Assembly (NCBI RefSeq): GCF_000720255.1
Contig: NZ_JOJE01000016.1
Coordinates: 124,001-188,000 of the forward strand
Length of the DNA: 64,000 bases
From: Streptomyces griseus subsp. griseus
Lineage (GTDB): Bacteria; Actinomycetota; Actinomycetes; Streptomycetales; Streptomycetaceae
Direction of reading: 5' to 3'
Shown: positions 4,998 to 45,243 of the stretch, piece by piece
Numbering within the stretch: position 1 is the stretch's first letter
Layout of the letters: each line of letters opens with the position of its first letter
Translations under genes and position numbers: made by a program
The notes under the pieces: model-generated
Database searches by the model: none
Seen by the model: only the letters and a program-made list of their open reading frames with translations
What the model was told of the DNA's origin: nothing

Positions 4998-6284
4998 TCA
5001 GACCGGCGTCAACTCGACCGGCAGCCTTTTGATGCCGTTGACGAAGTTGGAGCGCACGCGTGGCACGTCGCCGGTCAGGCGGATGTCGGCGATGCGGGGG
5101 ATCAGCTCCTCGAACATGATCCTGATCTCGGTGCGGGCGAGGAGGTTGCCCAGGCACAGATGGGGGCTGCCCTTGCCGAAGGTGACGTGGTCGTTGTTCT
5201 GCCGGGTGACGTCGAAGTCGTAGGGGTTGCCGAAGACCTCCTCGTCGCGGTTGCCGGAGGCGAACCACATGACGACCTTGTCGCCCTCCTTCACCTGCTT
5301 GCCGCCGAGCTCGACGTCCCGGGTGGCGGTGCGCCTGAAGTGGTAGACGGGGGAGGCCCAGCGCAGGAACTCCTCGACCGCGGTCGGGATGAGGGAGGGG
5401 TCCTCCTGGAGGCGGGCGAGCTGCTCGGGGTGCTGGAGCAGGGCCAGCATGGAGTGGGAGATGGTGTGCCGGGTGGTCTCGTTGCCCGCCACCACCAGCA
5501 GCAGGAAGTAGTTGTCGAAGTCCTGCGCCGACAGCGGCACCCCGTCGCGCGGAGTGGTGTTGACCAGCTTCGACACCAGGTCCGTGCCCGCGCCGCCGCG
5601 CCGCTGCCGGGCCAGCTCCCGCCCGTACGCGAAGACCTCCAGCGAGGCGGGGGAGCGGAACGGCAGATCGCGGTAGCGCTCGCTCTCGGCGCTGTGCAGC
5701 AGCACGTCCGCGTAGTCGGGGTCGGTGTTGCCGATGATGCGGTTGCCCCAGTCGATGAGCTGCTGGTTGTCCTCCGGCGGCACGTCGAGGAGCCTGGCCA
5801 GGACGTTGATCGGGAAGTCCGCGGAGACCTCCTTGACGAAGTCGAAGCTTCCCTTGGCCAGCGCCGCGTCCAGCGTCTTGGCGGTCAGGCCGCGCAGGAA
5901 GTCGCCGTAGCTGTTGATGACGCTCGCGCCGAACTGCCGCTGGATCACGCTGCGCAGGGCGCGGTGGCGGACACCGTCCAGCTCCAGGATGGAGGCGCGC
6001 TTCTTGATCTGGTCGTCGTCGACCTCCTCCAGGTTGACGAACCGGGTCGAGGTGAAGGTCTCCGGGTCACGGTCGACGGCGGCGATGTCCGCGTGCCGGG
6101 TGACCGCCCAGAAACCGGAGTTGGGGGCCTCCTCGGGCTGCCAGTGGACCGGGTCCCGGTGGCGCAGCGTGTGGAACATCCGCCATGGCGTCACGCCGTC
6201 GGTGAAGTTGTCGAGGTCGGCGAGGTCCACGTCCTGAAGGGGCATGGGCTCGTGCGCGGCGGTGGTCAGGGTGTCGGTCATCAA
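4998..6284 (-). CDS. Cytochrome P450 monooxygenase
   Basis: This is a 428-residue soluble bacterial P450. It has the oxygen-activating I-helix AGNETT (residues 266-271), the K-helix ExxR (E305-R308), and the heme loop FGKGSPHLCLG with the axial thiolate at Cys377. The C-terminal NGIKRLPVELTP resembles actinobacterial CYP families acting on alkyl chains or hydrophobic rings, but I cannot assign a CYP number. It is the second gene of a leftward operon, 13 bp after the gamma-glutamyl ligase. The divergent operon opens with a [3Fe-4S]-type ferredoxin and a ferredoxin reductase, the likely electron donors. It probably hydroxylates the cluster's amine-derived substrate. Confidence 0.95.
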   Translation of the reverse strand: MMTDTLTTAAHEPMPLQDVDLADLDNFTDGVTPWRMFHTLRHRDPVHWQPEEAPNSGFWAVTRHADIAAVDRDPETFTSTRFVNLEEVDDDQIKKRASILELDGVRHRALRSVIQRQFGASVINSYGDFLRGLTAKTLDAALAKGSFDFVKEVSADFPINVLARLLDVPPEDNQQLIDWGNRIIGNTDPDYADVLLHSAESERYRDLPFRSPASLEVFAYGRELARQRRGGAGTDLVSKLVNTTPRDGVPLSAQDFDNYFLLLVVAGNETTRHTISHSMLALLQHPEQLARLQEDPSLIPTAVEEFLRWASPVYHFRRTATRDVELGGKQVKEGDKVVMWFASGNRDEEVFGNPYDFDVTRQNNDHVTFGKGSPHLCLGNLLARTEIRIMFEELIPRIADIRLTGDVPRVRSNFVNGIKRLPVELTPV

Positions 6285-6297
6285 ATGGTCCTCGAGG

Positions 6298-7653
6298 TCA
6301 CAGGTGGTACGCGTACTCGGTGAACTCCCAGTCGGTCACGTGCCGTTGGAAGCGTTCGACCTCGTTGCGCTTGTAGCTCAGGAACGAGGTCACGAAGTCC
6401 TTGCCGAGCAGCTCGGCGAGGGCGGTGTCCGCCTCCAGCGCGTCCAGCGCGGCGGGCAGGCTCGTCGGCAGCACGGCGGACCTCGCCGCGTCGTAGCCGT
6501 AGCCCTCCAGTGGGGCGGGCGGCTCCTCACCGGCCAGCACACCGAGCAGCGCGGCGGCGATCGTGCCGGCGATCAGCAGATAGGGGTTGGCGCCGGCATC
6601 GCCGAGGCGCAGTTCCAGCCGGGCGCCGCCGCCCCGCTCCGGCGGGACGCGCACCATGGCGCTGCGGTTGTCCAAACCCCAGTCGATCAGCCAGGGCGCG
6701 AGGGTGTCCGGACCGAAGCGCTTGTACGAGTTCACCGTGGGGTTGGCCAGCGCGGCGAGCGCGGGCGCGTGGGCGAGGATGCCCGCCAGGGCGTGCCGCG
6801 CGGCGGCCGACAGCCCGTACGCGCCCGAGGGGTCGTCGAAGGCGTTGCGACCTTCGGCGTCCTCGCAGGACAGGTGGAGGTGGAAGCCGGAGCCGCCCGC
6901 GTCGCCGAAGGGCTTCGCCATGAACGTGGCCAGCTTGCCCTCCTTGCGGGCCAGCTCCTTGACGGCCGACTTGAAGCGGAAGGCGCGGTCGGCGGCGTCC
7001 AGAGCGCCGGAGTGGATGAGGTTGATCTCGTACTGCCCGCCGTCGAACTCGTGGTTGCCGGTGACGACACCCAGCCCCGCGTCCCGCAGCTGCCGCAGGG
7101 TGCGCAGCAGGTGGTTGTCGGGGTCGGCGCGCAGGCCCGCGGTGTAGACGGCGCCGGGGGTCTCCGGGGAGCGGCGCCATCCTGAGGGCCGCTCGGGGGC
7201 GGGCTCCAGCAGGAAGTACTCCAGCTCTGGTCCCACGACCGGCGACAGCCCGTGGTCGGCGCAGCGGGCGAGCACCGCGCGCAGCAGGTCCCGCGGCGAC
7301 TCCGCCGCCGGGCCGCCGGCCGCCGGATCGCCGACCTCGCCCAGACAGACGGCGACCCCGGGCTCCCACGGCAAAGCGGCCAGGGTCGACAGATCCGGCC
7401 GTACGCAGACGTCCGGCAGGCCCGCGTCCAGTCCACCGGCGACCGGGACCACGTCGCCCTGTGGGGAGGTGTGGTAGACGGCCCGGCAGAAGGCGAGGCC
7501 GTGCGCGCAGGCGGCGGGCAGGTGGTCCAGCAGGACGTCGCGGGCCCTGTCGGTGCCGATGAGGTCGGGATAGGTCACCCGGACCACGTCGATACCGTCG
7601 GCGGCGAGCCGCTCCAGGTGCCGGGCGATGTCTGGGGTGTCGTGAGCGCTCAC
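6298..7653 (-). CDS. Glutamine-synthetase-like gamma-glutamyl amine ligase (PuuA/GlnA3-4 type)
   Basis: This is a 451-residue class I GS fold, expected to join glutamate to an amine using ATP. All key residues appear intact: the metal pair E144/E146 (GPELEYF), E202 and E209 (NHEFDGGQYEINL), the His in GSGFHLHLS (~258-260), NRSAMVRVP (329-337), and E347/R349 in RLELRLGD. It lacks the adenylylation-loop context of nitrogen-assimilating GS. The neighbours PuuC, PuuD and an APC permease point to gamma-glutamylation of an amine rather than ammonia assimilation. The start is GTG 7653, with GAGGAGA seven bases upstream. It is the first gene of the leftward operon. Confidence 0.9.
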   Translation of the reverse strand: MSAHDTPDIARHLERLAADGIDVVRVTYPDLIGTDRARDVLLDHLPAACAHGLAFCRAVYHTSPQGDVVPVAGGLDAGLPDVCVRPDLSTLAALPWEPGVAVCLGEVGDPAAGGPAAESPRDLLRAVLARCADHGLSPVVGPELEYFLLEPAPERPSGWRRSPETPGAVYTAGLRADPDNHLLRTLRQLRDAGLGVVTGNHEFDGGQYEINLIHSGALDAADRAFRFKSAVKELARKEGKLATFMAKPFGDAGGSGFHLHLSCEDAEGRNAFDDPSGAYGLSAAARHALAGILAHAPALAALANPTVNSYKRFGPDTLAPWLIDWGLDNRSAMVRVPPERGGGARLELRLGDAGANPYLLIAGTIAAALLGVLAGEEPPAPLEGYGYDAARSAVLPTSLPAALDALEADTALAELLGKDFVTSFLSYKRNEVERFQRHVTDWEFTEYAYHL

Positions 7654-7782
7654 CGGGGTCTCCTCGGGCGGATGGTGGGCACCCCCGGCCCTTCGGGGCG
7701 CTGGGGGAGGGTGGCGTGACGAGGACGCGAGGCCGCGGTGCGGGGGATCCGGACGGACCGCCCCGGAGCACCGCCGGGCCAT

Positions 7783-7800
7783 TCGTTTGACTCCGAACGG
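7783..7800. promoter_or_regulatory. Putative TetR operator, site 1 (leftward operon)
   Basis: TCGTTTGACTCCGAACGG is an imperfect 18-bp dyad sharing the TCGTTTG-N4-CRAACGR pattern with two other sites in the cluster. It overlaps the -10 proposed for the leftward gamma-glutamyl ligase/P450 operon, so a bound repressor would block polymerase. The cluster's own TetR (13606-14232) is the obvious candidate. Confidence 0.6.
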
Positions 7801-7825
7801 TATGGAGATGGTGACCGTCCCGCAA
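7797..7825 (-). promoter_or_regulatory. Putative promoter of the ligase/P450 operon
   Basis: On the minus strand, TTGCGG (7825-7820) and TACCGT (7802-7797) are separated by 17 bp. The match to a vegetative promoter is moderate, but the position relative to operator site 1 mirrors the arrangement at the divergent promoter. Confidence 0.4.
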
Positions 7826-7862
7826 GGGGGCGGTCCGAAAAATTTATCCACCTGGACAGGTA

Positions 7863-7891
7863 TTGACCAGGGTCGGTCGGCTTCCTATGTT
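7863..7891 (+). promoter_or_regulatory. Putative promoter of the ferredoxin operon
   Basis: TTGACC (7863-7868) and TATGTT (7886-7891) are spaced by exactly 17 bp, a good vegetative-type promoter. Operator site 2 starts at the last bases of the -10. Transcription would begin near 7898, leaving a leader of about 120 bases before the ferredoxin start. Confidence 0.6.
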
Positions 7892-7907
7892 GTTTGAAGC
7901 CAAACGA
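7890..7907. promoter_or_regulatory. Putative TetR operator, site 2 (ferredoxin operon)
   Basis: TTGTTTGAAGCCAAACGA is an 18-bp dyad (TTGTTT, 6-bp spacer, AAACGA). It covers the -10 end and the likely start point of the ferredoxin promoter. It matches sites 1 and 3 in half-site sequence and spacing. Confidence 0.65.
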
Positions 7908-8020
7908 GTGGGGGAGGCGGCTGGACCGCCTCCCTTTGGCCGAGGGCCCGGCCGTCACCACGGCCGGGCTCCCTCCCCTCCACCTCGCTCCGACGCCCTC
8001 ACCCTCAGGAGGACCGCACC

Positions 8021-8209
8021 ATGAAGGTCGTCGTCGACATGAACAAGTGCCAGGACCACGGCCAGTGCGTCTTCGCTTCCCCCGATGTCTTCTCCATGGA
8101 CGACGACGGTCACCTGGCCTACGTCCCCGACCCCGACGACGCCCTGCGCGACGAGGTCGAGGAGGCCGCGGACGTCTGCCCGCTCCAGGCCATCCGGATC
8201 GAGGGCTGA
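8021..8209 (+). CDS. P450-type [3Fe-4S]/[4Fe-4S] ferredoxin
   Basis: This is a 62-residue ferredoxin. The cluster ligands are Cys10 and Cys16 in CQDHGQC and the Cys-Pro near the C-terminus (DVCPLQAI). The second usual cysteine position is His, as in many P450-partner ferredoxins that carry a 3Fe cluster. The acidic surface (DDDGH, PDPDDALRDEVEEAAD) suits docking to P450 and reductase. The ATG follows AGGAGG. It is the first gene of the rightward operon, and its stop is 5 bp from the ferredoxin reductase start. It very likely feeds electrons to the divergently encoded P450. Confidence 0.93.
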   Translation: MKVVVDMNKCQDHGQCVFASPDVFSMDDDGHLAYVPDPDDALRDEVEEAADVCPLQAIRIEG

Positions 8210-8214
8210 CCCCC

Positions 8215-9432
8215 ATGACCGAGCTGCCCGGACGCATCGTCGTCGCCGGCGCCTCCCTGGGCGGCCTGCGCGCCGCCGAACAGCTGCGCGCGGCGGGCTG
8301 GACCGGGGCCGTCACCGTCGTCGGCGACGAGCCCCACATGCCCTACAACCGGCCCCCGCTGTCGAAGGAGGTGCTGGCCGGGAAGGCCCCCTTCGAGTCC
8401 CTCGCCCTCACTCCGAAGCCGGCCGCCGCCGACGTCGAGTGGCGCCTCGGGACCAAGGTCGTCGAGGCACGGCTCGCCGAGCGGACCGTCGAGTTGGACG
8501 ACGGTTCGGTCCTGCCCTACGGCGGACTGGTCGTCGCCACCGGCATGCGCCCCCGGCGACTGTCGTGCCCGGGCCCCCTCGTCGGGCGCCACACCGTCCG
8601 CACTCTCGCCGACGCCCGCGCCCTGCGCGACGAACTGGCCCGGCCCGGCGCGCGGGTGGTCGTGATCGGCGCCGGATTCATCGGCTGCGAGGTCGCCGCC
8701 ACCGCCGTCGGCCTCGGCGTCCGCGAGGTCACGGTCGTCGACCCGCTGCCCCTGCCCATGGTGGGCCCGCTCGGCGAACTCCTCGCCCGTGCGCTGCGCA
8801 CACGGCACGAGCAGCGCGGGGTGCGGTTCGCGCTCGGGGCGACGGTGGCCGGGTTCGAGGGCGACGACCGGGTCACCGGTGTCGTCCTGGGCGACGGCTC
8901 CGTACTGGCGGCCGACGTGGTCGTCGAATCCGTCGGTTCCGTCGCCAACGTCGAGTGGCTCCGGGGCAACGGGCTCGACCTGGCCGACGGTGTGCTCACC
9001 GACGAGCAGCTGCGCGTCGGCGGACGGCCCGAGGTCGTCGCGGTCGGCGATGTGGCCCGCTTCCCCAACGCCCGCTACGACGGCGTGGCCCGCCGGGTCG
9101 AGCACTGGTCGGTCCCGAGCGACACCGCCCGACACGCGGCACGCGTCCTCGCCTCCCATCTCAACGGCGCCGACGCGGAGTTGCCGCCCTTCGCGCCGCT
9201 GCCCACCTTCTGGAGCGACCAGCACGACTTCCGGCTCCAGTCCTTCGGGGCGCCGGCGCTCGGCCGGGACGACGTCCGTGTCCTGGACGGCGACCCGGCC
9301 GATGACGTACTCGCCGGCTACCACGCCGACGGCCGGCTCGTCGGCGTCGTCGCCCTCGGCGGCCAGGCCGCCACCCGGGGCGCCGCCCGCTACCGCGCCC
9401 AGCTGCTGCGGCAGCCCGCCCTCACCGCGTAA
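8215..9432 (+). CDS. FAD-dependent ferredoxin reductase
   Basis: This is a 405-residue pyridine-nucleotide-disulfide-type flavoprotein. The N-terminal FAD-binding Rossmann motif reads IVVAGASLGGLRAAEQL, PYNRPPLSKE follows, and a second nucleotide fold for NAD(P)H reads VVVIGAGFIGCEVAATA. The FAD-contacting VVAVGDVARFPN sits near residue 275. The C-terminal domain with FWSDQHDFRLQSFG is typical of rubredoxin/putidaredoxin-reductase relatives. It should transfer electrons from NAD(P)H to the ferredoxin next door. Translation begins 5 bp after the ferredoxin stop. Confidence 0.93.
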   Translation: MTELPGRIVVAGASLGGLRAAEQLRAAGWTGAVTVVGDEPHMPYNRPPLSKEVLAGKAPFESLALTPKPAAADVEWRLGTKVVEARLAERTVELDDGSVLPYGGLVVATGMRPRRLSCPGPLVGRHTVRTLADARALRDELARPGARVVVIGAGFIGCEVAATAVGLGVREVTVVDPLPLPMVGPLGELLARALRTRHEQRGVRFALGATVAGFEGDDRVTGVVLGDGSVLAADVVVESVGSVANVEWLRGNGLDLADGVLTDEQLRVGGRPEVVAVGDVARFPNARYDGVARRVEHWSVPSDTARHAARVLASHLNGADAELPPFAPLPTFWSDQHDFRLQSFGAPALGRDDVRVLDGDPADDVLAGYHADGRLVGVVALGGQAATRGAARYRAQLLRQPALTA

Positions 9433-9454
9433 GGAACCCTAAGGAACCCCCGCC

Positions 9455-10261
9455 ATGCCCTCAGTCCGTGGTTACTTCCCTCCCAAGACGGCGAGCGGTG
9501 CCTCGTCGCTGATCCCGTCCCCGCCGTGGCGCTACTCCGGCGACCTGCTCACCGTCGAGTACCGCACGGATCCCACGCGTGTGCGTGAACTGCTGCCCGA
9601 ACCACTGGAGTTGGCGGACGAGGATCCCGGCGCGGTCGCTCTCATCTGGGCCGACTGGCAGTCCTGCGCCGCTTCCGGCGACGAGCTGCTCGACCCCGTG
9701 CTCTCCCAGTACAAGGAGGCGTTCGCGGTCGTGCGTTGCGCGTACCGGGGGCGGACCTTCTCGCGGTGCGTGTACATCTGGGTCGACAAGGACTTCGCCA
9801 TCGCGCGTGGGCTGCACCAGGGCTATCCGAAGAAGCTCGGCTCGATCCACCAGACCCGCCCGCACCTCTACGGGCCCGCTCCGCGGATCGAGGCGGGAGC
9901 GCGCTTCGGGGCGACGCTGGCGGCGGCGGACCGGCGGCTCGCCCAGACGGTCGTCACCCTGCGGGAGCCGTCGCCGACCAATGGGTTCGTCAACGGTCAC
10001 CCCATGCTTCACCACCGCTGGCTGCCGTCCATCGAGAAGGGCAAGGGACTCGCCCTGGACGAGCTGATCGAGTCGGGGGCCGCGTCCTTCGAGGGCGGCC
10101 AGGCGTGGGTGGGTGATGCCGAGCTGGAGCTGTTCGAGGCGCCCACGGAGGAGTTGGCCCGGCTGGAGGTCCGCGAACCGATCGCCGCGTACTACCGCCA
10201 GGTCGGCGTGGTGTGGGACGGCGGACGGCTGTTGGAGTCCGGCACGTCCGGAGCCGAGTGA
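9455..10261 (+). CDS. Acetoacetate decarboxylase (ADC) superfamily enzyme
   Basis: This is a 268-residue ADC-fold protein. GYPKKLGSI carries the adjacent lysine pair of the family, where one Lys forms a Schiff base with a keto substrate and its neighbour lowers the pKa. The block YKEAFAVVRCAYRGR and the C-terminal EPIAAYYRQVGVVWDGG also fit. Within this meta-cleavage operon the substrate is more likely a keto acid or ring-cleavage product than acetoacetate; decarboxylation, or an aldolase/dehydratase role as in some ADC-like enzymes, is possible. It lies 22 bp after the reductase. Confidence 0.85.
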   Translation: MPSVRGYFPPKTASGASSLIPSPPWRYSGDLLTVEYRTDPTRVRELLPEPLELADEDPGAVALIWADWQSCAASGDELLDPVLSQYKEAFAVVRCAYRGRTFSRCVYIWVDKDFAIARGLHQGYPKKLGSIHQTRPHLYGPAPRIEAGARFGATLAAADRRLAQTVVTLREPSPTNGFVNGHPMLHHRWLPSIEKGKGLALDELIESGAASFEGGQAWVGDAELELFEAPTEELARLEVREPIAAYYRQVGVVWDGGRLLESGTSGAE

Positions 10262-10304
10262 CCGGAGTGACCCCCCTTACCCACGCAGGACTTGGAGACC
10301 GGAC

Positions 10305-11768
10305 ATGACCGAGCACACCCTCACGGTGGCCGGGGTCGCCGTCGACACCCGGCACTGGATCGGCGGCGAACGCGTCGCGTCCCCCGACACCTACACCGAC
10401 TTCTCTCCCATCGACGGAAGCGCCCTCGGGGAGATCGCCCGCGGCGGGCCCGCCGAAGCCGAGGCCGCCGTGGCCGCCGCCAAGGCCGCCTTCCCCTCCT
10501 GGGCCGCCACCCCCCGCGCCGAACGCGCCCGCCTCCTGCACGCCGTCGCCGACGGCGTGGAGAAGCGGCTGGAGGATCTCGCGATCGTCGAGACCACCGA
10601 CAACGGCGCGCTGCTGCGTTCGCACCGGCGGGGCGTGATGCCCCGGGTCGCGCACAACTTCCGCTTCTTCGCGGACTGGTTGTCGAGGCTGGACCACGAG
10701 GACTTCGAGACCCGGGGGCACACCAACCACGTGAGCTGGGACCCGGCCGGGCCGTCCGTGCTGATCACTCCGTGGAACGCCCCGCTGATGCTGGCCACCT
10801 GGAAGGTCGCCCCGGCGCTCGCGGCCGGCAACACCGTCGTCCTCAAGCCGGCCGAGTGGTCCCCGCTCACCGCCTCGCTGCTGGCGGACATCGCGGCGGA
10901 GGCGGGGCTGCCGGCCGGTGTCCTCAACGTCGTCCAGGGCTACGGCGCCGAGATCGGCGACGCCCTGACCTCCCACCCGGACGTCCGCCGGATCAGCTTC
11001 ACCGGGTCGGTGCCCACCGCCCGGCGGATCGCCGCGTCGGCCGCCGCCAACCTCACCCCGCTCAGCCTCGAACTCGGCGGGAAGTCACCCCTGTTGGTGT
11101 TCGCCGACGCCGATCTCGACCTGGCCGTCGACCTCGCGGTGGAGCAGTACGACAACGCCGGACAGGTCTGCCTCGCCGCGACCCGCATCCTCGTCGAGGA
11201 GAGTGCCGCCGAGGAGTTCACCCGCCGGTTCGTCGAGAAGGCCTCCCGGCTCACGCAGGGCGACCCGCGCGACGAGGGCACCGACATCGGGCCGAACATC
11301 CACCCCCGTCAGCTGGAGAAGATCGACGGCTTCGTGCGGCGGGCGATCGCGGACGGCGCCCGCGCGCTGATCGGCGGTCACCGCAAGGACGGTCAGTACT
11401 ACGCCCCGACGCTCCTCACGGAAGTCGCCCAGGACGCGGAGATCGTCCAGGAGGAGGTGTTCGGTCCGGTCCTGACCCTCCAGACCTTCACCACCGAGGA
11501 GGAGGCCGTCCGCCTCGCCAACGACACCCGCTTCGGCCTGGCCGCCACCCTCGCCACCGGCGACCCGGAACGGGCCGACCGGGTCACCGCCCGGCTCGTC
11601 GCCGGCACGGTCTGGGTCAACTGCTTCTTCGTACGCGACCTCCAGGCCCCCTTCGGCGGCTCCCGCCTCTCCGGTGTCGGCCGTGAGGGCGGCACCTGGA
11701 GCTTCGACTTCTACTGCGACCTGAAGAACACCGTCACCGCCCCGAAGGGATTCAGGGACCATGGGTGA
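10305..11768 (+). CDS. Aldehyde dehydrogenase, HpaE-like (5-carboxymethyl-2-hydroxymuconate semialdehyde dehydrogenase)
   Basis: This is a 487-residue NAD(P)-dependent ALDH. Landmarks are ITPWNAPLMLATWK (cofactor), FTGSVPTAR, the general base Glu256 in LELGGKS, and the nucleophile Cys289 in NAGQVCLAATR. The C-terminal VRDLQAPFGGSRLSGVGREG and FDFYCDLKNT resemble HpaE, which oxidises the ring-fission aldehyde of homoprotocatechuate. The next gene is an HpaD-like dioxygenase whose ATG overlaps this stop by 8 bp, which supports that assignment. A different aromatic semialdehyde remains possible. Confidence 0.85.
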   Translation: MTEHTLTVAGVAVDTRHWIGGERVASPDTYTDFSPIDGSALGEIARGGPAEAEAAVAAAKAAFPSWAATPRAERARLLHAVADGVEKRLEDLAIVETTDNGALLRSHRRGVMPRVAHNFRFFADWLSRLDHEDFETRGHTNHVSWDPAGPSVLITPWNAPLMLATWKVAPALAAGNTVVLKPAEWSPLTASLLADIAAEAGLPAGVLNVVQGYGAEIGDALTSHPDVRRISFTGSVPTARRIAASAAANLTPLSLELGGKSPLLVFADADLDLAVDLAVEQYDNAGQVCLAATRILVEESAAEEFTRRFVEKASRLTQGDPRDEGTDIGPNIHPRQLEKIDGFVRRAIADGARALIGGHRKDGQYYAPTLLTEVAQDAEIVQEEVFGPVLTLQTFTTEEEAVRLANDTRFGLAATLATGDPERADRVTARLVAGTVWVNCFFVRDLQAPFGGSRLSGVGREGGTWSFDFYCDLKNTVTAPKGFRDHG

Positions 11769-12693
11769 GATCGTCGGGGCGGGCCTGCTCGCCCATGTAC
11801 CCACCATCGTGCTGCCCGAGGCCGACCGGCTGGAGCTCAACGAGGGCAAGGAGATCACCCTCGTCACGGGCTTGGAGCAACTGCGCAAGGACGTCTTCGA
11901 TCGGGACGACTACGACACCGTCGTCGTCCTCGACTCCCACTGGGCGACGACCGTCGAGTTCGTCGTCACCGCCCAACAGCGGCGCGCGGGCCTGTTCACC
12001 TCCGAGGAGCTGCCGCGCGGCATGTGCCGGATGCCGTACGACTTCCCCGGCGACCCCGAACTCGCCCACAACATCGCCTCGTTCGCCGACAAGCACGGCA
12101 CCTGGATCACCGCGATCGAGGACGACTACCTACCGATCTACTACGCCACCATCAACCTCTGGAAGTTCCTCGGCGAGGGCCTGCCCGACAAGCGGTGGGT
12201 GACGATCGGCGTCTGTCAGACCGGCGACATGGAGGACCACCTGCGCCTGGGCCGCGCCCTCGCCGACGGCATCGCCGCCACCCCGGGACGCCGGGTGCTG
12301 CTCATCGCGTCCGGCGCGCTCTCGCACACCTTCTGGCCACTGCGCGAGATCCGCGACCACGAGGCCAGCGATCCGGTCCACATTCGTACCCCCGAGGCCC
12401 GCGAGGCCGACTACGAGCGCATCGCCTGGTTCAAGGAGGGCCGCCACGACAAGGTCCTCGACACCATGGACGCGTTCTGGAAGCTCAAGCCCGAAGCGAA
12501 GTTCTTCCACTACCTAATGCTGGCCGGCGCACTCGGCGAGCGGGCCTGCGTGGCCGGGGCCCGCCAGTACGGGGAGTACGAGAACTCCGTCGGCACCGGC
12601 CAGGTCCACCTCTGGTTCGACCGCCCCGCCGACGGCTGGACCGGCGCCCCGGCCCCCGCGGCCGCCGCCCCCCGCCACCCCCACCGCCTCTAG
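11761..12693 (+). CDS. LigB-type extradiol dioxygenase, HpaD-like (3,4-dihydroxyphenylacetate 2,3-dioxygenase family)
   Basis: This is a 310-residue class III extradiol ring-cleavage enzyme using non-heme Fe(II). The candidate metal ligands His12 (LLAHVPTIVLPE) and His60 (VVLDSHWATTVEF) sit where the family expects them. The blocks GLFTSEELPRGM, LLIASGALSHTF and SVGTGQVHLWF parallel enterobacterial HpaD. The expected reaction opens a catechol next to a hydroxyl group, giving a hydroxymuconic semialdehyde for the overlapping HpaE-like enzyme. The exact catechol cannot be read from sequence. Confidence 0.88.
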   Translation: MGEIVGAGLLAHVPTIVLPEADRLELNEGKEITLVTGLEQLRKDVFDRDDYDTVVVLDSHWATTVEFVVTAQQRRAGLFTSEELPRGMCRMPYDFPGDPELAHNIASFADKHGTWITAIEDDYLPIYYATINLWKFLGEGLPDKRWVTIGVCQTGDMEDHLRLGRALADGIAATPGRRVLLIASGALSHTFWPLREIRDHEASDPVHIRTPEAREADYERIAWFKEGRHDKVLDTMDAFWKLKPEAKFFHYLMLAGALGERACVAGARQYGEYENSVGTGQVHLWFDRPADGWTGAPAPAAAAPRHPHRL

Positions 12694-12733
12694 CCCACCG
12701 CCTCTGGCCCCACCGCCTTCAGGAAGGCCCGCC

Positions 12734-13579
12734 ATGCCCGAGTACCGCCGCATCCTCCTCGACGGCGCCGCCGTCCAGGTCACCGTCGACGGTGACGAAC
12801 TCGTCGCCGGGGACGGCCGCCGCGTCAAGACCGAGGACGCCCAGCACCTGCCGCCGGTGGTCCCCTCCAAGGTGATCGCCGTCCACCTCAACCACCGCAG
12901 CAGGGTCGAGGAGTTCCAGATCGGGCTCCCCGGCACGCCCACCTATTTCCACAAGCCGACCTCGGCCCTCAACTCCCACCGGGGTGCGATCGTCCGCCCC
13001 GAGGGCTGCAAGTGGCTCAACTACGAGGGGGAGGTCGCCATCGTCATCGGCAGGACCGCCCGCAACATCGCGCCGGAGGAGGCGGGGGAGTACATCGCGG
13101 GCTACACCATCGCCAACGACTACGGCCTGCACGACTTCCGCGACACCGATGCCGGCTCCATGCTCCGCGTGAAGGGCTCCGACACCCTCTGCCCGCTCGG
13201 CCCGGGCCTGGTCACCGACTGGGACTTCCACGGCAAGCGGCTGCGGACATACGTCAACGGCGAGGTGGTGCAGGACGGTTCGACCGACGAGATGACGTGG
13301 GACATGCACTACCTCGTCGCCGACATCGCCCGCACCATCACCCTGTACCCCGGTGACGTCCTGCTGTCCGGCACCCCCGCCAACTCCCGCCCCGTCCAGC
13401 CGGGAGACGTGGTGGAGGTGGAGGTGGACGGTCTCGGCCGGCTCACCAACCACGTCGTCACCGGCCCCGCCCCCGTCCGCGCCGACGTCGGCGCCCAGCC
13501 CACCGAGTCGGAGGAGGTGCTGTCCACCGCGCTCGGCGGCGACTGGGAGTTCCGGGGCGTCCGCCCGCCGAAGCGGTGA
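12734..13579 (+). CDS. Fumarylacetoacetate hydrolase family protein (HpaF/HpaG-like isomerase/decarboxylase or hydratase)
   Basis: This is a 281-residue single FAH domain. The metal-binding acidic cluster is visible as YEGEVAIVIGR, and other family blocks are GYTIANDYGLHDFRD, KGSDTLCPLGPGLVT, and the closing VLLSGTPANSRPVQPGDVVEVEV. In the homoprotocatechuate route such enzymes isomerise or decarboxylate 5-carboxymethyl-2-hydroxymuconate. E. coli HpaG is a two-domain fusion, but only one domain is present here, so one step may be done by the ADC-like enzyme. It ends in a GTGA overlap with the longest possible frame of the TetR gene. Confidence 0.87.
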   Translation: MPEYRRILLDGAAVQVTVDGDELVAGDGRRVKTEDAQHLPPVVPSKVIAVHLNHRSRVEEFQIGLPGTPTYFHKPTSALNSHRGAIVRPEGCKWLNYEGEVAIVIGRTARNIAPEEAGEYIAGYTIANDYGLHDFRDTDAGSMLRVKGSDTLCPLGPGLVTDWDFHGKRLRTYVNGEVVQDGSTDEMTWDMHYLVADIARTITLYPGDVLLSGTPANSRPVQPGDVVEVEVDGLGRLTNHVVTGPAPVRADVGAQPTESEEVLSTALGGDWEFRGVRPPKR

Positions 13580-13605
13580 GCGGACGGGCGGGTAGGGTCG
13601 CAGCC

Positions 13606-14232
13606 ATGACCGACTCCGCCGAGGGTGCCGACAGCCGTGAGCCGCGCCGGCGCATGGCCTACGGGGAAGGCCGCGAGGCCCTGCTCAACGCCGCCGTGCG
13701 GGTCGTCGCCCGGGGCGGGCTGCGCAAGCTCACCTACCGGGCTGTCGCGCAGGAGGCGGGCACCACCCACGGCCTCGTCGTCCACCACTTCGGCTCCCGG
13801 GACGCCCTCATCGAGGAGGCGCTCGCCCACGCCGTGCGCACCAGCCTCAATGTGAGCGACGTCGAGCCGGGCACCGGCAAGGTCACGGACTTCTCGGCCG
13901 GCCTGTCCGACATGGTCACCGCAGACCCCGACACCCAGGCCTTCCAGTACGAGCTGCTCCTGGAGTCCCGGCGCCGCCCTGAACTGCTGCCGCAGATCCG
14001 CGCCCTGTACGACGACTACTTCGACGCCACCGAGCGCGAGCTGTCCCGGATGCTCCCCGACGACGCCGGCCGCCCGCTGACCCGGCTGGTGTTCGCCGCC
14101 CTCGACGGGCTCGTCCTGCACCAGCTCGTGTTCGGCGAACCCGAGGTCACCGACGCGGCCCTGGAGCAGCTGCGCGGGCTCCTGCGCCTGCTGGACGCCA
14201 ACGGGGACACCCCTTCCGCCACCGACGGCTGA
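13606..14232 (+). CDS. TetR family repressor, likely local regulator of the amine/aromatic cluster
   Basis: This is a 208-residue TetR protein. The N-terminal helix-turn-helix reads LTYRAVAQEAGTTHGLVVHH followed by FGSRDALIEEAL; the C-terminal helices form a ligand domain. ATG 13606 is preferred, with GGGTAGGG ten bases upstream. A GTG at 13576 would overlap the FAH stop and is a possible longer start. Being the last gene of the ferredoxin operon, it would be autoregulated through operator site 2. Sites 1 and 3 would extend control to the P450 operon and the permease operon. The inducer is probably a pathway intermediate. Confidence 0.88.
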   Translation: MTDSAEGADSREPRRRMAYGEGREALLNAAVRVVARGGLRKLTYRAVAQEAGTTHGLVVHHFGSRDALIEEALAHAVRTSLNVSDVEPGTGKVTDFSAGLSDMVTADPDTQAFQYELLLESRRRPELLPQIRALYDDYFDATERELSRMLPDDAGRPLTRLVFAALDGLVLHQLVFGEPEVTDAALEQLRGLLRLLDANGDTPSATDG

Positions 14233-14251
14233 TCCGCCCACCCGGCAACCC

Positions 14252-14281
14252 CGGGCCCCGGGCGCGGTCGTCCGGGGCCCG
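14252..14281 (+). terminator. Strong GC hairpin after the TetR gene
   Basis: A perfect 10-bp stem (CGGGCCCCGG / CCGGGGCCCG) with a 10-base loop begins 20 bp past the TetR stop. There is no adjacent U-tract, which is usual in Streptomyces; CTTTTT follows only 15 bases later. It probably ends the ferredoxin-to-TetR operon. Confidence 0.6.
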
Positions 14282-14362
14282 ACCTCTTCCCGCCTCTTTT
14301 TGCAGGGCAATGCGCCGCCACCCCCTTGCCAAACGGATAGTTCCAGCCCACCATGAGGCAAC

Positions 14363-14380
14363 TCGTTTGGCCTGAAACGA
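14363..14380. promoter_or_regulatory. Putative TetR operator, site 3 (permease operon)
   Basis: TCGTTTGGCCTGAAACGA has perfect 6-bp half-sites (TCGTTT / AAACGA) and the same 6-bp spacer as site 2. It lies 32-49 bp upstream of the permease start. A lone half-site, CCAAACGG, occurs ~34 bp further upstream (14329-14336). Confidence 0.65.
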
Positions 14381-14411
14381 CATCCTCTCCCCTCTCTGGC
14401 AGGTGATCCGA

Positions 14412-15857
14412 GTGGACAGTCAGACAGCGGTCAGAAACCAGGCCGCGCCCGACGCCTCCACCGCAGGCAAGCTCAAGCCCAACTCCCTCGGCGTCCTGGG
14501 CATCCTCTTCTTCGTCCTCTCCGCCCAGGCGCCGCTGACCGGCATCGCGGGCTCCGTCCCCATCTCCGTCGCCATCGGCAACGGTCCCGGCACCCCCGCC
14601 GCCTACGCGGCCGCCGGTGTGATCACCCTGCTGTTCGCCGTCGGCTTCGTGGCCATGGGGCGCCACGTGGTGAACGCCGGCGCCTTCTACAACTACATCG
14701 GCAAGGGCCTCGGCCGGTCCGTCGGCACCGGCAGCGCCGGGATCGCCCTCTTCGCCTACTGCGCGATCCAGGCCGCCATGTACGGCCTGTACGGCGCGAC
14801 CGTGAGCGCCCTGCTCGCCCACCACACCGGCCTCGACGCGCCCTGGTGGGCATGTGCCCTGGTCACCATGGCGATCGTCCAGGTGCTGGGCGCCGCGGGC
14901 ATCGAGATGGGCGCCAAGGTGCTGGCGGTCTTCGTGCTGGCGGAGTTCAGCATCCTGACCGCCTTCGCGCTCGTCACCTTCGCCAAGGGAGGCGGCCCCG
15001 AGGGGCTCGGCCTCGGTCAGTCCTTCTCACCGGGTGCGGCACTGGAGGGCGCCCCGGGCGTGGCACTGATGTTCGCCGTGGCGTCGATGATCGGCTTCGA
15101 GGCCACCGCGATCTACGGCGAGGAGGCCCGCGAACCCCGCAGGACCGTCCCCCGGGCCACCTATCTGGCGGTCGCCCTCGTCACCGGATTCTTCGCCTTC
15201 ACCTCCTGGATGCTGGTCTCCTCCTACGGCGCGTCGAAGGCGACCGCGGCCGCCGGCAAGGCGCTGGGCAGCGGCGACTCGACGAGTTTCGTCTTCGCCC
15301 CGATCGCCGCCCAGTTCGACGCCTGGGTCAACGACGTGCTGCCGATCCTGCTGGCCACCTCCCTCTTCGCCGGCATCCTCGCCTTCCACAACTCCGCCAA
15401 CCGCTACCTGTTCTCCCTCAGTCGCGACGGACTGCTGCCCCGCAGGCTGTCGTCCATCAACCGCCGCCACTCGCCGGGCGCCGCGGGCACCGTCCAGACG
15501 GCGATCGCCGTGCTGCTGGTCGTCCCCTTCGCCCTGGCCGGCAAGGACCCGGTGCTGACCCTGTTCTCCTGGGGCAGCGGCGTCGCCGTCCTTGGGATCA
15601 TGCTCCTGTATCTGCTGACCTCGGCCTCCGTGGTCGCCTTCTTCCGCCGGCACCGTTTGGACACCCGGCCCTGGAACACACTGATCGCCCCCGCCCTGGG
15701 CGCCGTCGGCATCGCCGGCGCGATCTGGCTGATCGTCGAGAACTTCAGCACCCTCATCGGCGGTGAGCAGACCACCGCCCTCTGGCTCGAACTGACCGTC
15801 CCGGCGGTGCTGGCCCTGGGCGTGATCGCGGCCCGGCTGACCCGGCACCGCTCGTGA
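14412..15857 (+). CDS. APC-superfamily amino acid/amine permease (PuuP-like role)
   Basis: This is a 481-residue polytopic membrane protein with about 12 hydrophobic segments. The first, LGVLGILFFVLSAQAPLTGI, is typical of APC transporters, as are GAFYNYIGKGLG and MIGFEATAIYGEEAREPRRT. It probably imports the amine or amino acid that the cluster degrades. GTG 14412 is chosen because AGGTGAT lies at ribosome-binding distance; GTG 14403 is an alternative only three codons longer. It heads a unit with PuuC- and PuuD-like genes and is preceded by operator site 3. Confidence 0.9.
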   Translation: MDSQTAVRNQAAPDASTAGKLKPNSLGVLGILFFVLSAQAPLTGIAGSVPISVAIGNGPGTPAAYAAAGVITLLFAVGFVAMGRHVVNAGAFYNYIGKGLGRSVGTGSAGIALFAYCAIQAAMYGLYGATVSALLAHHTGLDAPWWACALVTMAIVQVLGAAGIEMGAKVLAVFVLAEFSILTAFALVTFAKGGGPEGLGLGQSFSPGAALEGAPGVALMFAVASMIGFEATAIYGEEAREPRRTVPRATYLAVALVTGFFAFTSWMLVSSYGASKATAAAGKALGSGDSTSFVFAPIAAQFDAWVNDVLPILLATSLFAGILAFHNSANRYLFSLSRDGLLPRRLSSINRRHSPGAAGTVQTAIAVLLVVPFALAGKDPVLTLFSWGSGVAVLGIMLLYLLTSASVVAFFRRHRLDTRPWNTLIAPALGAVGIAGAIWLIVENFSTLIGGEQTTALWLELTVPAVLALGVIAARLTRHRS

Positions 15858-15917
15858 CCGGCCGCACCCTCCCCCCGTACCAACCCGAACGCACCGTCTG
15901 ACCTGGAGGCCCCACGC

Positions 15918-17408
15918 ATGCCGGACATCACCCACGACGAGTGGCTGCGCCGCGCCAAGGTCCTGGAGGTGTCCGGCGCGCACCACATCGACGGCGCCGA
16001 CGAGAGCGGCGGGGGAGCGGCCTACGCCGTCGTCTCGCCCCGGGACGGACAAGTGCTGGGGGAGGTCGCCGACGGGGGAGCCGCCGAGGTGGACGCGGCC
16101 GTCGCCGCCGCCCGCCGGGCGTTCGACTCCGGCCCCTGGCCATGCCTGACACCCGCCGAACGCGGCCGGACGCTCGTGCGGATCGCCGAGCTGCTCGAGG
16201 AACACCGGGAAGAGCTCGCCCTCACCGTCAGTCTGGAGATGGGCAAGCCGGTCACCGACGCGTACGAGATCGAACTGCGCGCCGCCATCACCACCTTCCG
16301 CTGGTACGGGCAGCTCGCCGACAAGCTCACCGACGAGTCGCCGCACACCGCTCCCGACGCCCTGGCGCTGGTCACGCGGGAGCCGACCGGCGTCGTCGGC
16401 GCGGTCGTCCCCTGGAACTTCCCGCTCACCCTGGCTAGCTGGAAGATCGCCCCGGCGCTCGCCGCCGGCTGCACGGTGGTGCTCAAGCCTTCCGAGACCA
16501 CTCCGCTGTCCGCCCTGCTGCTGGGCCGGATCGCCACCGAGGCCGGGCTGCCGCCGGGCGTCCTCAACGTCGTCAACGGCAACGGGCCGGTCGCCGGACG
16601 GGCCCTCGGCCTCCACCCCGACGTCGACGTCCTCGCCTTCACCGGCTCCACCGCCGTCGGCCGCCACTTCCTGCGCTACGCCGCCGACTCCAACCTCAAG
16701 CGTGTCTGGCTGGAGCTGGGCGGCAAGTCACCCAACATCATCCTGCCCGACGCCCCCGACCTGGCGAAGGCGGCCGCCACCGCCGCCTGGGGCATCTTCT
16801 TCAACCAGGGTGAGATGTGCACCGCCCCCTCCCGGCTGCTGGTGCACTCCTCGATCGCCGACCAGGTCACCGAGGCCGTCGTGGCCGGGGCCCACGCCCT
16901 GCGCGTCGGTGATCCCCTCGACCCCGCGACCGAGATGGGCGCGCTGGCCGGTGAGAGCCACCTCGTCCGCGTACTGGACCACATCGACGCGGGCCGGGCG
17001 GCGGGTGCCCGCCTGCGCACGGGCGGCGAGCGCATCCTCACCGCCACCGGAGGCACGTACCTGGAGCCGACCGTCTTCGACCGCGTCGACCCGGGCATGC
17101 GGCTGGCCCGTGAGGAGATCTTCGGCCCCGTCCTGTCCGTGCTCGCCTTCGACGACCTCGACGAGGCGGTACGCCTGGCCAACGCCACGGAGTACGGCCT
17201 CGCGGCGGGCCTGTGGACCTCCGACCTGTCCACGGCCCACCGGGTCTCCCGCGCCCTCAAGGCCGGCACGGTCTGGGTGAACTGCTACGAGGAGGGCGAC
17301 CTGACCGTGCCCTTCGGCGGCATGAAGCAGTCCGGCAACGGCCGCGACAAGTCCGCCCACGCCCTGGAGAAGTACACCGAGCTCAAGACGACCTGGATCC
17401 AGCTGTGA
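15918..17408 (+). CDS. puuC: Gamma-glutamyl-aminoaldehyde dehydrogenase (PuuC-like)
   Basis: This is a 496-residue ALDH. Catalytic Glu266 (LELGGKS) and Cys301 (FNQGEMCTAPSR) are present. The C-terminal block DLTVPFGGMKQSGNGRDKS, then ALEKYTELKTTWI, is strongly PuuC-like. E. coli PuuC oxidises gamma-glutamyl-gamma-aminobutyraldehyde. Here the substrate would be a gamma-glutamylated aldehyde made by the upstream steps. The next gene is a PuuD-like hydrolase starting 4 bp before this stop ends, so the two are translationally coupled. No PuuB-type amine oxidase is encoded in the cluster. Confidence 0.88.
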   Translation: MPDITHDEWLRRAKVLEVSGAHHIDGADESGGGAAYAVVSPRDGQVLGEVADGGAAEVDAAVAAARRAFDSGPWPCLTPAERGRTLVRIAELLEEHREELALTVSLEMGKPVTDAYEIELRAAITTFRWYGQLADKLTDESPHTAPDALALVTREPTGVVGAVVPWNFPLTLASWKIAPALAAGCTVVLKPSETTPLSALLLGRIATEAGLPPGVLNVVNGNGPVAGRALGLHPDVDVLAFTGSTAVGRHFLRYAADSNLKRVWLELGGKSPNIILPDAPDLAKAAATAAWGIFFNQGEMCTAPSRLLVHSSIADQVTEAVVAGAHALRVGDPLDPATEMGALAGESHLVRVLDHIDAGRAAGARLRTGGERILTATGGTYLEPTVFDRVDPGMRLAREEIFGPVLSVLAFDDLDEAVRLANATEYGLAAGLWTSDLSTAHRVSRALKAGTVWVNCYEEGDLTVPFGGMKQSGNGRDKSAHALEKYTELKTTWIQL

Positions 17409-18109
17409 CAACGCCCGCACGCCCGCTCATCGCCGTCCCCGCCCGCTTCTCCGCCACCACCTCCGCACTCAGGTACGCCGCCGAGGTCAACGCCCGCGCG
17501 CTGATCGAGGCGGTGTGGCGGGCCGGCGGCGAACCGGTGAGCGTCCACCCGGCGACCACCGAGGTGCCCGCCCGCCTCACCCGCTTCGACGGCGTCCTGC
17601 TGCCCGGCGGCGGTGACCTGGCCCCGCACCGCTACGGCGCCGCCGACACCCACGCGAGCGTCTACGACGTGGACGACCTCCAGGACACCTTCGACCTCGC
17701 CGTCGCCCGGGAGGCACTGGAGCAGGGCCTGCCCCTGCTGGCGGTCTGCCGCGGCCTCCAGGCTGTCAACGTCGCCCTCGGCGGCACCCTGGAACAGGAC
17801 ATGGGCGGCCCGCAGCGCGAGCACCGGCACCTCGTGCACCCCGTGGAGGTCCGGCGCGGCACGGCACTGGAGCGGGCCGTCGGCGCCGAGAAGATCGAGG
17901 TCTCCTGCTACCACCACCAGCGGGTCGACCGCCTCGGCGCGGGCCTCACCGTCACGGCCCGTGCGGCCGACGGCACCGTGGAGGGACTCGAACTCGTCAC
18001 GGCCACCGGATGGTTCACCGCCGTCCAGTGGCACCCCGAGGACACCGCCCACGAGGACCCCGCCCAGCAGGGGCTCTTCGACGCCCTCGTCCGAGCTGCC
18101 GGAGGGTGA
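17405..18109 (+). CDS. puuD: Gamma-glutamyl-gamma-aminobutyrate hydrolase-like class I glutamine amidotransferase (PuuD-like)
   Basis: This is a 234-residue class I GATase-fold hydrolase. The nucleophile is Cys115 in LLAVCRGLQAVN, with His210 and Glu212 in FTAVQWHPEDT; DGVLLPGGGDLAP forms the oxyanion region. It should release glutamate from the oxidised gamma-glutamyl intermediate. The start is GTG 17405, overlapping the PuuC stop in GTGA. With the GS-like ligase it bounds a complete protect-and-release gamma-glutamylation route. Confidence 0.88.
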   Translation: MTTPARPLIAVPARFSATTSALRYAAEVNARALIEAVWRAGGEPVSVHPATTEVPARLTRFDGVLLPGGGDLAPHRYGAADTHASVYDVDDLQDTFDLAVAREALEQGLPLLAVCRGLQAVNVALGGTLEQDMGGPQREHRHLVHPVEVRRGTALERAVGAEKIEVSCYHHQRVDRLGAGLTVTARAADGTVEGLELVTATGWFTAVQWHPEDTAHEDPAQQGLFDALVRAAGG

Positions 18110-19541: not shown

Positions 19542-19556
19542 GCAGCCGAGCACCAG

Positions 19557-19573
19557 GAGAACGTAAAGTTCTC
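19557..19573. repeat. Perfect inverted repeat GAGAAC-N5-GTTCTC
   Basis: The dyad (GAGAACGTAAAGTTCTC) lies between the ALDH stop and the aldo/keto reductase start, 45 bp before the latter. It could be an operator for the reductase gene or a weak terminator; position alone does not decide. Confidence 0.45.
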
Positions 19574-19617
19574 GGCCGACCGTCCGACTGTCCGTCCGCC
19601 CGTGCGAAACTCCGTCG

Positions 19618-43877: not shown

Positions 43878-44058
43878 ATTCCCTCCCGGGAGAAGAACAG
43901 AGGTGAGCGACGCGGTCATACGCGTGCTTCCAGGCAAGCAGCGGCCGTGGCGGTCGGGTACGGCGTGAAAGGGGCGGCTTCGGGCCCTGGAGGTGCCAAA
44001 CCTCGCTGATGAGGCGGAGGGAGCGTGGCGGCCGGCGCCGTACGCCGGAGGGCGGCGC

Positions 44059-45081: not shown

Positions 45082-45243
45082 CTCGCCGCCCCCGTCCTGC
45101 CTCGGACTTCCAGTCTGGTGCGGAAACCGACATTCAGCGCGCGAGCGGGACAAGTGGTGACTAGCGTGAGGATTCGGACAAGCCATCGGGCATCCCAGGG
45201 GGACGGCCCTTCGGCGACGCATCGACCGGGAAGGGGCCGCGCC

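What the first reader, a model, noticed from the sequence alone, without database searches (positions are those of the whole stretch)
4998..18109. Candidate new hybrid pathway: gamma-glutamylation plus P450 plus homoprotocatechuate-type ring cleavage
Two modules that are normally separate share one divergent cluster. One is the Puu logic (GS-like ligase, permease, PuuC, PuuD) that masks an amine with glutamate and later removes it. The other is meta-cleavage (HpaE-, HpaD-, HpaF/G-like). A P450 with ferredoxin and reductase links them. No PuuB amine oxidase or HpaBC hydroxylase is present. I infer degradation of an aromatic or arylalkyl amine (for example a tyramine- or dopamine-like compound) in which the P450 supplies the hydroxylation or oxidative deamination. 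The substrate is not known from sequence.
Basis: partly seen in the sequence, partly recalled or inferred. Interest (0 to 1): 0.85.

Follow-up and report, generated by a model that had tools for sequence, protein, structure and literature searches.

The report
Masked-amine route for tyramine breakdown
This stretch of a soil bacterium's DNA probably encodes an undescribed way to use tyramine- or dopamine-like amines as food: the amine is capped with glutamate, the aromatic ring is opened with the cap still on, and the cap comes off only at the end, leaving GABA.

Summary
The genes are really there (4998-18109), plus an acetoacetate-decarboxylase-like (ADC) gene the finding does not name. The two halves are inherited together: in 296 genomes of the class, all 21 with the dioxygenase also have the ligase, P450 and ADC; only two have the ligase without the dioxygenase. 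Gamma-glutamyl-dopamine taken through the homoprotocatechuate route with its cap on would give pyruvate and 4-(gamma-glutamylamino)butanal, exactly PuuC's substrate. That explains the missing PuuB. The ADC protein, related to a pyruvate aldolase, could replace hydratase and aldolase; the P450 could replace HpaBC, of which HpaB is absent from the genome. In 7 of 21 genomes a PLP decarboxylase gene lies within 10 kb of the dioxygenase (0.44 expected). Against: PuuC is not clearly identifiable in 11 of 23 genomes, hydratase-like genes exist elsewhere in the genome, the decarboxylases' substrate is uncertain, and nothing is assayed. Best reading (0.55): a deamination-free tyramine/dopamine pathway, not described in anything my searches listed. 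New variant of a known kind.

The parts
4998..6284 (-). Cytochrome P450, proposed ring hydroxylase (tyramine or its gamma-glutamyl amide to the catechol)
   Evidence: PF00067; nearest solved chains CYP125MRCA 424 bits, then CYP124 270 bits; matched at E<=1e-130 in 23 of 296 genomes, the same 23 as the ligase
6298..7653 (-). GS-like ligase, proposed gamma-glutamyl-arylalkylamine synthetase
   Evidence: PF00120; flap Glu of GS aligned with Leu; Leu in 84 and Ile, Val, Ala or Thr in 4 of 88 motif matches
7654..8020 (.). Divergent intergenic region, presumed promoters; several inverted repeats
   Evidence: sequence, inverted repeats; not tested further
8021..8209 (+). Single-cluster ferredoxin
   Evidence: PF13370/PF13459
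8215..9432 (+). FAD ferredoxin reductase
   Evidence: PF07992, PF14759
9455..10261 (+). ADC-superfamily protein, proposed hydratase/retro-aldolase releasing pyruvate
   Evidence: PF06314; nearest solved relatives 6eej/4zbo 158 bits and MppR 149 bits, lysine of the PK motif aligned; QGYPKKLG in all 80 motif matches; in 22 of 296 genomes
10305..11768 (+). HpaE-like semialdehyde dehydrogenase
   Evidence: NCBIfam HpaE 532 bits, next 449
11761..12693 (+). LigB-type extradiol dioxygenase, HpaD-like
   Evidence: PF02900, TIGR02298 122 bits, best solved chain 8iq8 64 bits; in 21 of 296 genomes
12734..13579 (+). FAH-family HpaG-like isomerase/decarboxylase
   Evidence: PF01557; 1gtt 222 bits, 1wzo 164 bits
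13606..14232 (+). TetR-family regulator
   Evidence: PF00440; not near the cluster in the more distant loci
14403..15857 (+). Amino-acid permease family transporter, presumed amine uptake
   Evidence: PF00324, PF13520
15918..17408 (+). PuuC-like gamma-glutamyl-aminobutyraldehyde dehydrogenase
   Evidence: NCBIfam PuuC 563 bits, next 480
17405..18109 (+). PuuD-like gamma-glutamyl hydrolase
   Evidence: PF07722; PRK11366 79 bits, cut-off 266

Best explanation
A deamination-free pathway for a phenethylamine, most likely tyramine (through dopamine). (1) The GS-like ligase caps the amine with glutamate. (2) The P450 with ferredoxin and reductase makes the catechol; the order of 1 and 2 is unknown. 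(3) The LigB enzyme opens the ring of gamma-glutamyl-dopamine beside the side chain. (4) The HpaE-like dehydrogenase oxidises the semialdehyde. (5) The HpaG-like enzyme isomerises and decarboxylates. (6) The ADC-like protein adds water and cleaves, giving pyruvate and 4-(gamma-glutamylamino)butanal. (7) PuuC oxidises this to gamma-glutamyl-GABA. (8) PuuD releases glutamate and GABA. The cap keeps the free amine from cyclising with the ring-cleavage aldehyde or with the C4 aldehyde. Shown: homology, conserved residues, co-inheritance. Inferred: every reaction, the substrate and the order.
For: Ligase, P450, ADC and LigB co-occur across 296 genomes, also when ligase and dioxygenase lie on different contigs (G042, G045, G127); distances of six proteins correlate, r 0.92-0.97, in 74 of 100 loci. 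Carbon bookkeeping of the recalled homoprotocatechuate route ends at PuuC's substrate, and the two ALDHs sort as HpaE-like and PuuC-like. Ligase lacks the flap Glu, the argument used for GlnA4 and PauA7 (PMC6529630, passages). HpaB and HpaI have no match in the genome. ADC relatives MppR and a proposed ADC-type aldolase in a phenol meta-cleavage route (PMC7820114, passages). PLP decarboxylase within 10 kb of LigB in 7 of 21 genomes, 0.44 expected; JGI names for relatives of the L119 one are aromatic-L-amino-acid decarboxylase.
Against: No assay. PuuC not beside the cluster in most distant loci and not clearly identifiable genome-wide in 11 of 23 genomes; no clear PuuD in 5 of 23. HpaH has two sub-threshold matches elsewhere in the genome (197 and 110 bits, C26) and CHMI one weak match (32 bits), so hydratase or isomerase could be supplied from outside. 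The decarboxylases' best NCBIfam models, far below cut-off, are diaminobutyrate decarboxylase. P450's nearest structures oxidise steroids and lipids. L012, L037 and L055 lack a nearby P450. G128 has ligase, P450 and ADC but no LigB match. No decarboxylase lies in the window.
Confidence: 0.55

Rival explanations
1. Same cap-on logic with a different arylalkylamine: methoxylated phenethylamines such as 3-methoxytyramine, or octopamine-type amines. The P450 would demethylate or hydroxylate accordingly.
For: A VanA-like Rieske oxygenase occurs in 5 loci (L110, L111, L121, L122, L128) and a PDR-like reductase in 7, beside ligase or P450 (Pfam run on the L121 pair only). The three P450-less loci have other neighbours: ABC importer, aldo/keto reductase, methyltransferase-like genes by eye in L012 and L055.
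Against: The window and most Streptomyces loci have no Rieske gene nearby among the genes I labelled; the P450 is kept in all 23 ligase genomes, which one substrate with a fixed need for hydroxylation explains more simply.
Confidence: 0.2
2. Deamination first: the amine is oxidised to the acid (homoprotocatechuate), which the meta-cleavage half degrades, while ligase, PuuC and PuuD serve polyamines or detoxify the amine.
For: The dioxygenase's listed homologues are named 3,4-dihydroxyphenylacetate 2,3-dioxygenase or catechol dioxygenase; the known route in P. putida U goes through that acid (title cited in PMC10606097, passages).
Against: No amine oxidase among the cluster ORFs; no HpaI and no HpaB in the genome; it does not explain why ligase and dioxygenase are inherited together, also unlinked; and the dioxygenase scores only 122 bits against a cut-off of 316 with the HpaD model.
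Confidence: 0.12
3. A biosynthetic cluster making a gamma-glutamyl or ring-cleaved amine natural product.
For: P450 and extradiol enzymes occur in such clusters (recalled). In Lentzea (L075-L080) the ligase sits beside a MarR gene and a decarboxylase with no ring-cleavage gene within the fetched 10 kb.
Against: A permease, a hydrolase that undoes the cap, a full set leading to pyruvate and GABA, and conservation even in genomes of 1.8-3.3 Mb.
Confidence: 0.08

Closest known systems
Aniline / 1-naphthylamine degradation (AtdA1-A5, NpaA1-A5; PMC11335346, passages)
   Same: A GS-like glutamyl organic amide synthetase caps an aromatic amine before oxygenation; ring cleavage follows.
   Different: There a Rieske dioxygenase turns the capped amine into a catechol, so the cap and nitrogen are gone before ring cleavage. 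Here the amine is on a side chain and is proposed to stay capped to the end; P450 instead of Rieske enzyme; PuuC and PuuD present.
Puu pathway (PuuA-PuuB-PuuC-PuuD, E. coli; recalled, also listed in PMC10606097)
   Same: GS-like ligase, permease, PuuC and PuuD; proposed shared intermediates gamma-glutamyl-aminobutyraldehyde and gamma-glutamyl-GABA.
   Different: No PuuB; the aldehyde is proposed to come from aromatic ring cleavage, not from oxidation of a second amine.
Homoprotocatechuate (Hpa/Hpc) meta-cleavage pathway (recalled)
   Same: HpaE-, HpaD- and HpaG-like enzymes.
   Different: No HpaBC, HpaF, HpaH or HpaI in the cluster; an ADC-superfamily protein instead; proposed capped amine side chain instead of acetate.
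GlnA4 ethanolamine pathway of Streptomyces coelicolor (PMC6529630, passages)
   Same: Ligase without the flap Glu, aldehyde dehydrogenase, amidotransferase; cap kept until the end (later steps predicted in that paper).
   Different: Aliphatic substrate, no ring chemistry.
Saccharolobus phenol meta-cleavage (PMC7820114, passages)
   Same: ADC-superfamily proteins proposed as the aldolase of a meta-cleavage route, with a FAH-family protein.
   Different: Archaeal; catechol without side chain; no cap; the aldolase role is proposed there, not shown.

Membership tests
Puu pathway | PuuC- and PuuD-like enzymes with a GS-like ligase and permease | tested here: met
   PuuC best of NCBIfam models but below cut-off (563 of 850 bits), PuuD-like 79 of 266 bits, permease, ligase
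Puu pathway | PuuB amine oxidase | tested here: not met
   no such domain among the cluster ORFs; not searched genome-wide
Homoprotocatechuate pathway | HpaE, HpaD and HpaG relatives | tested here: met
   best or near-best models, each below its equivalog cut-off; 1gtt 222 bits
Homoprotocatechuate pathway | HpaBC, HpaH and HpaI | tested here: not met
   HpaB none, HpaI none, HpaH only sub-threshold in the genome; HpaC not searched
Glutamyl organic amide synthetase (GoaS) | GS fold without the ammonium-handling flap Glu | tested here: met
   Leu in its place
Glutamyl organic amide synthetase (GoaS) | ligation of glutamate to an organic amine | not testable with these tools
   needs an enzyme assay
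ADC superfamily, aldolase branch (MppR-like) | Schiff-base lysine and closest relatives being aldolases | tested here: inconclusive
   lysine aligned and conserved, closest solved relatives 6eej/4zbo and MppR, MppR model 173 of 380 bits; activity of 6eej/4zbo is recalled
Aniline dioxygenase (Atd/Npa) system | Rieske dioxygenase acting on the capped amine | tested here: not met
   no Rieske domain among the cluster ORFs scanned

The most novel reading that the evidence does not exclude
A widespread, undescribed actinobacterial pathway that breaks down tyramine/dopamine without first removing the nitrogen: meta-cleavage opens the aromatic ring while the side-chain amine stays masked as a gamma-glutamyl amide, an acetoacetate-decarboxylase-superfamily enzyme does the terminal hydration and aldol step, and the products are pyruvate, glutamate and GABA.
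Probability: 0.5. Interest if true: 0.82.

Novelty: new variant of a known kind. Interest (0 to 1): 0.75.

Why it matters
The known bacterial route for tyramine and dopamine begins by oxidising the amine away. A cap-on route would be a second solution with a clear chemical reason: no free amine beside reactive aldehydes. It would join two pathway types through one shared intermediate, give an ADC-superfamily protein a role in aromatic breakdown, and give testable functions to genes now labelled only 3,4-dihydroxyphenylacetate dioxygenase or acetoacetate decarboxylase in many Streptomyces. It would also be a microbial link from tyramine or catecholamines to GABA.

Tried and rejected
Two unrelated pathways side by side: rejected on co-occurrence and distance correlation. 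Neighbours 18219-20514 (benzaldehyde-dehydrogenase-like ALDH, aldo/keto reductase) as part of the unit: not supported, no relative beyond about 35% seen in the related loci, but many of those loci end at or before PuuD. A cyclic-amine (morpholine/piperidine-type) P450 cluster: considered from memory, dropped because of the ring-cleavage half; not tested. P450 as a terminal-methyl oxidase, as its CYP125/124 relatives suggest: not excluded, but it would give the dioxygenase no catechol. Protein P0003 used as query carries 66 residues upstream of the likely start. ALDH1 was first scanned in the wrong frame, redone. My heme motif was written wrongly and matched 1 of 69 P450s; the result was not used. 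Literature: seven searches aimed at this pathway, two at ADC aldolases, one at gamma-glutamyl amides (83). None of the listed titles or abstract starts describes bacterial breakdown through gamma-glutamyl-tyramine or -dopamine; several searches listed only the best 15-20 of 59-147 papers, and most subscription journals are not in the library. PMC9814775 (passages) has no occurrence of 'glutamyl'. Structure prediction and fold search were not used.
Full report
What is in the window. From a 367-base intergenic region run, leftwards, a GS-like ligase (about 7653-6298) and a P450 (6284-4998), and, rightwards, a 62-aa ferredoxin, a ferredoxin reductase, an acetoacetate-decarboxylase-superfamily (ADC) protein, an HpaE-like dehydrogenase, a LigB/HpaD-like extradiol dioxygenase, a single-domain HpaG-like FAH protein, a TetR regulator, a permease, PuuC and PuuD, ending at 18109. 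The finding does not name the ADC gene. The two aldehyde dehydrogenases divide cleanly: the first scores best with HpaE (532 bits, next 449), the second with PuuC (563, next 480). None reaches the NCBIfam cut-off of the function named, so they are relatives, not certified members.

Is it one unit? Eighty named loci fetched by the ligase (the best 80 of 570 relatives) show the same gene set in most Streptomyces loci and, rearranged, in Actinomadura and Microtetraspora, and also in Nonomuraea, Thermocatellispora and Kibdelosporangium. Of the 80, LigB is in 64 and P450 in 68. The 16 without LigB are L018, three short contigs (L029, L046, L050), two further contigs that end nearby (L053, L054), L056, L059, L060, L069 and the six Lentzea loci L075-L080. 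Because these loci were chosen by the ligase, I repeated the test from the dioxygenase side in 296 genomes drawn evenly from the class. LigB is in 21 (E<=1e-30), the ligase in 23 (E<=1e-100), ADC in 22 (E<=1e-60), P450 in 23 (E<=1e-130). Every LigB genome has the three others. The two ligase-only genomes also have the P450; G128 has ADC, and G247 has a partial ADC at a contig end. Fisher tests give p about 1e-30 to 1e-31 for LigB with each of the three; shared ancestry is not corrected for, but LigB occurs in ten genera of eight families. In G042, G045 and G127 ligase and dioxygenase lie on different contigs and are both kept. In 74 of 100 loci that hold all six core genes, pairwise distances of the six proteins correlate at r 0.92-0.97.

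What the chemistry would be. The homoprotocatechuate route (recalled) opens the ring next to the side chain, oxidises the aldehyde, loses that carboxyl as CO2, hydrates and cleaves off pyruvate, and leaves succinate semialdehyde: one aldehyde carbon and one further carbon from the ring plus the two side-chain carbons. Replace the acetate side chain by CH2CH2NH-gamma-glutamyl, and the same steps give pyruvate and 4-(gamma-glutamylamino)butanal. That is PuuC's substrate; PuuC and PuuD then give glutamate and GABA. PuuB is not needed, because the aldehyde arises from the aldol step. HpaBC can be replaced by the P450 (no HpaB in the genome; P450 in all 23 ligase genomes). HpaH and HpaI can be replaced by the ADC-like protein: HpaI has no match in the genome, HpaH two matches below cut-off on another contig, so supply from there is not excluded; a weak CHMI match (HpaF-type isomerase) also lies elsewhere. 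The nearest solved relatives of the ADC-like protein are 6eej/4zbo (recalled to be an aldolase-dehydratase) and MppR. PMC7820114 (passages) describes MppR as an aldolase and proposes ADC-related proteins, induced about 80-fold on phenol, as the aldolase of an archaeal meta-cleavage route. The cap has a plausible purpose: an uncapped amine would cyclise with the ring-cleavage semialdehyde, and 4-aminobutanal would cyclise to pyrroline (recalled chemistry).

Is the ligase a glutamine synthetase? Probably not. The flap glutamate of GS (GYEAP) aligns with leucine (DTLAP); the methylamine ligase 9qur has tryptophan there. It is Leu in 84 and Ile, Val, Ala or Thr in the other 4 of 88 motif matches, never Glu. 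PMC6529630 (passages) uses the same loss, to Phe in GlnA4 and Trp in PauA7, as an argument against ammonium as substrate.

Which amine? PLP decarboxylase genes (PF00282) lie within 10 kb of LigB in 7 of 21 genomes (G042, G177, G201, G238, G256, G261, G280) against 0.44 expected from their genome-wide counts, and in 4 of 8 families against 0.19 (simple Poisson, f34 genomes are related). The enrichment is the firm part; the substrate is not. The 120 listed relatives of the L119 gene, where JGI names them, are aromatic-L-amino-acid (or L-tryptophan) decarboxylases, while one NCBI name is L-2,4-diaminobutyrate decarboxylase; NCBIfam scores the three genes tested best, far below cut-off, with diaminobutyrate decarboxylase. 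The L124 gene is nearest to 4obu (recalled to be a tryptophan decarboxylase) and ranks a DOPA decarboxylase third. A decarboxylase also lies near the ligase in Lentzea, L051 and L057. With a catechol-type dioxygenase and a P450 kept in all 23 genomes, tyrosine to tyramine is the simplest reading. Some loci add a VanA-like Rieske oxygenase and a reductase, which would fit entry of methoxylated amines.

Results against. PuuC is not beside the cluster in most distant loci. Genome-wide a match of 55% identity or more exists in 12 of 23 genomes: seven of the window's genus, G158, G177 and G256 on the same contig as LigB and 19-25 kb from it, and G157 and G272 on other contigs. In 11 the best match is 42-53%, which I cannot tell from general aldehyde dehydrogenases. 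A PuuD match of 48% or more is in 18 of 23; in four of the other five the best is 38-44%, and G201 has none at the threshold. The P450's nearest structures are steroid and lipid oxidases. L012, L037 and L055 keep ligase, ADC, LigB, FAH, PuuC and PuuD without a nearby P450; their whole genomes were not searched. The window has no such decarboxylase; the genome has six PF00282 matches elsewhere.

Known relatives. Aniline and 1-naphthylamine degradation also begin by capping with glutamate (PMC11335346, passages), but there the cap leaves when the dioxygenase makes the catechol. Tyramine and dopamine breakdown in P. putida U goes through 3,4-dihydroxyphenylacetate (title in the reference list of PMC10606097, passages). 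In seven searches aimed at it no listed title or abstract start describes a cap-on meta-cleavage. Verdict: a real, coherent, widely inherited unit; the pathway as above at 0.55; new variant of a known kind; interest 0.75.

Noticed in passing
L075-L080 (Lentzea), about 7.6-11.3 kb of each locus: A close relative of the ligase (65-66%) stands beside a MarR gene and a PLP decarboxylase-family gene, with no ring-cleavage gene within the fetched 10 kb: perhaps a stand-alone amine-capping unit.
   Followed up: partly
L110, L111, L121, L122, L128: A VanA-like Rieske oxygenase and a PDR-like reductase lie beside the P450 or ligase, possibly an O-demethylation entry module or alternative P450 electron donor.
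   Followed up: partly
L111, L112, L116, L118, L119, L120, L122, L126, L130: A luciferase-like (LLM) oxidoreductase recurs near the cluster (Pfam on the L119 copy); its role in the pathway is unexplained. A class I glutamine amidotransferase recurs likewise in nine loci.
   Followed up: no
L003, L024, L028, L033, L068, near 2-3.3 kb: A probable second P450 (by its N-terminal sequence, not scanned) lies between the TetR and permease genes; L104 and L107 show a 24-25% P450 match with a ferredoxin in the same place.
   Followed up: no
L012 and L055: In these loci without a nearby P450 the neighbours include an ABC importer, an aldo/keto-reductase-like and a methyltransferase-like gene (named by eye).
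   Followed up: no
window 18219-20514: A benzaldehyde-dehydrogenase-like ALDH (378 bits, cut-off 550) and an aldo/keto reductase follow PuuD; not seen conserved with the cluster.
   Followed up: partly
window 32045-34387: One 780-aa ORF combines two FHA domains with an ABC-2 type transporter.
   Followed up: no
window 43993-46038: A 681-aa ORF whose C-terminal third has glyoxalase/dioxygenase-superfamily matches while the rest matches no Pfam family at the threshold used.
   Followed up: no
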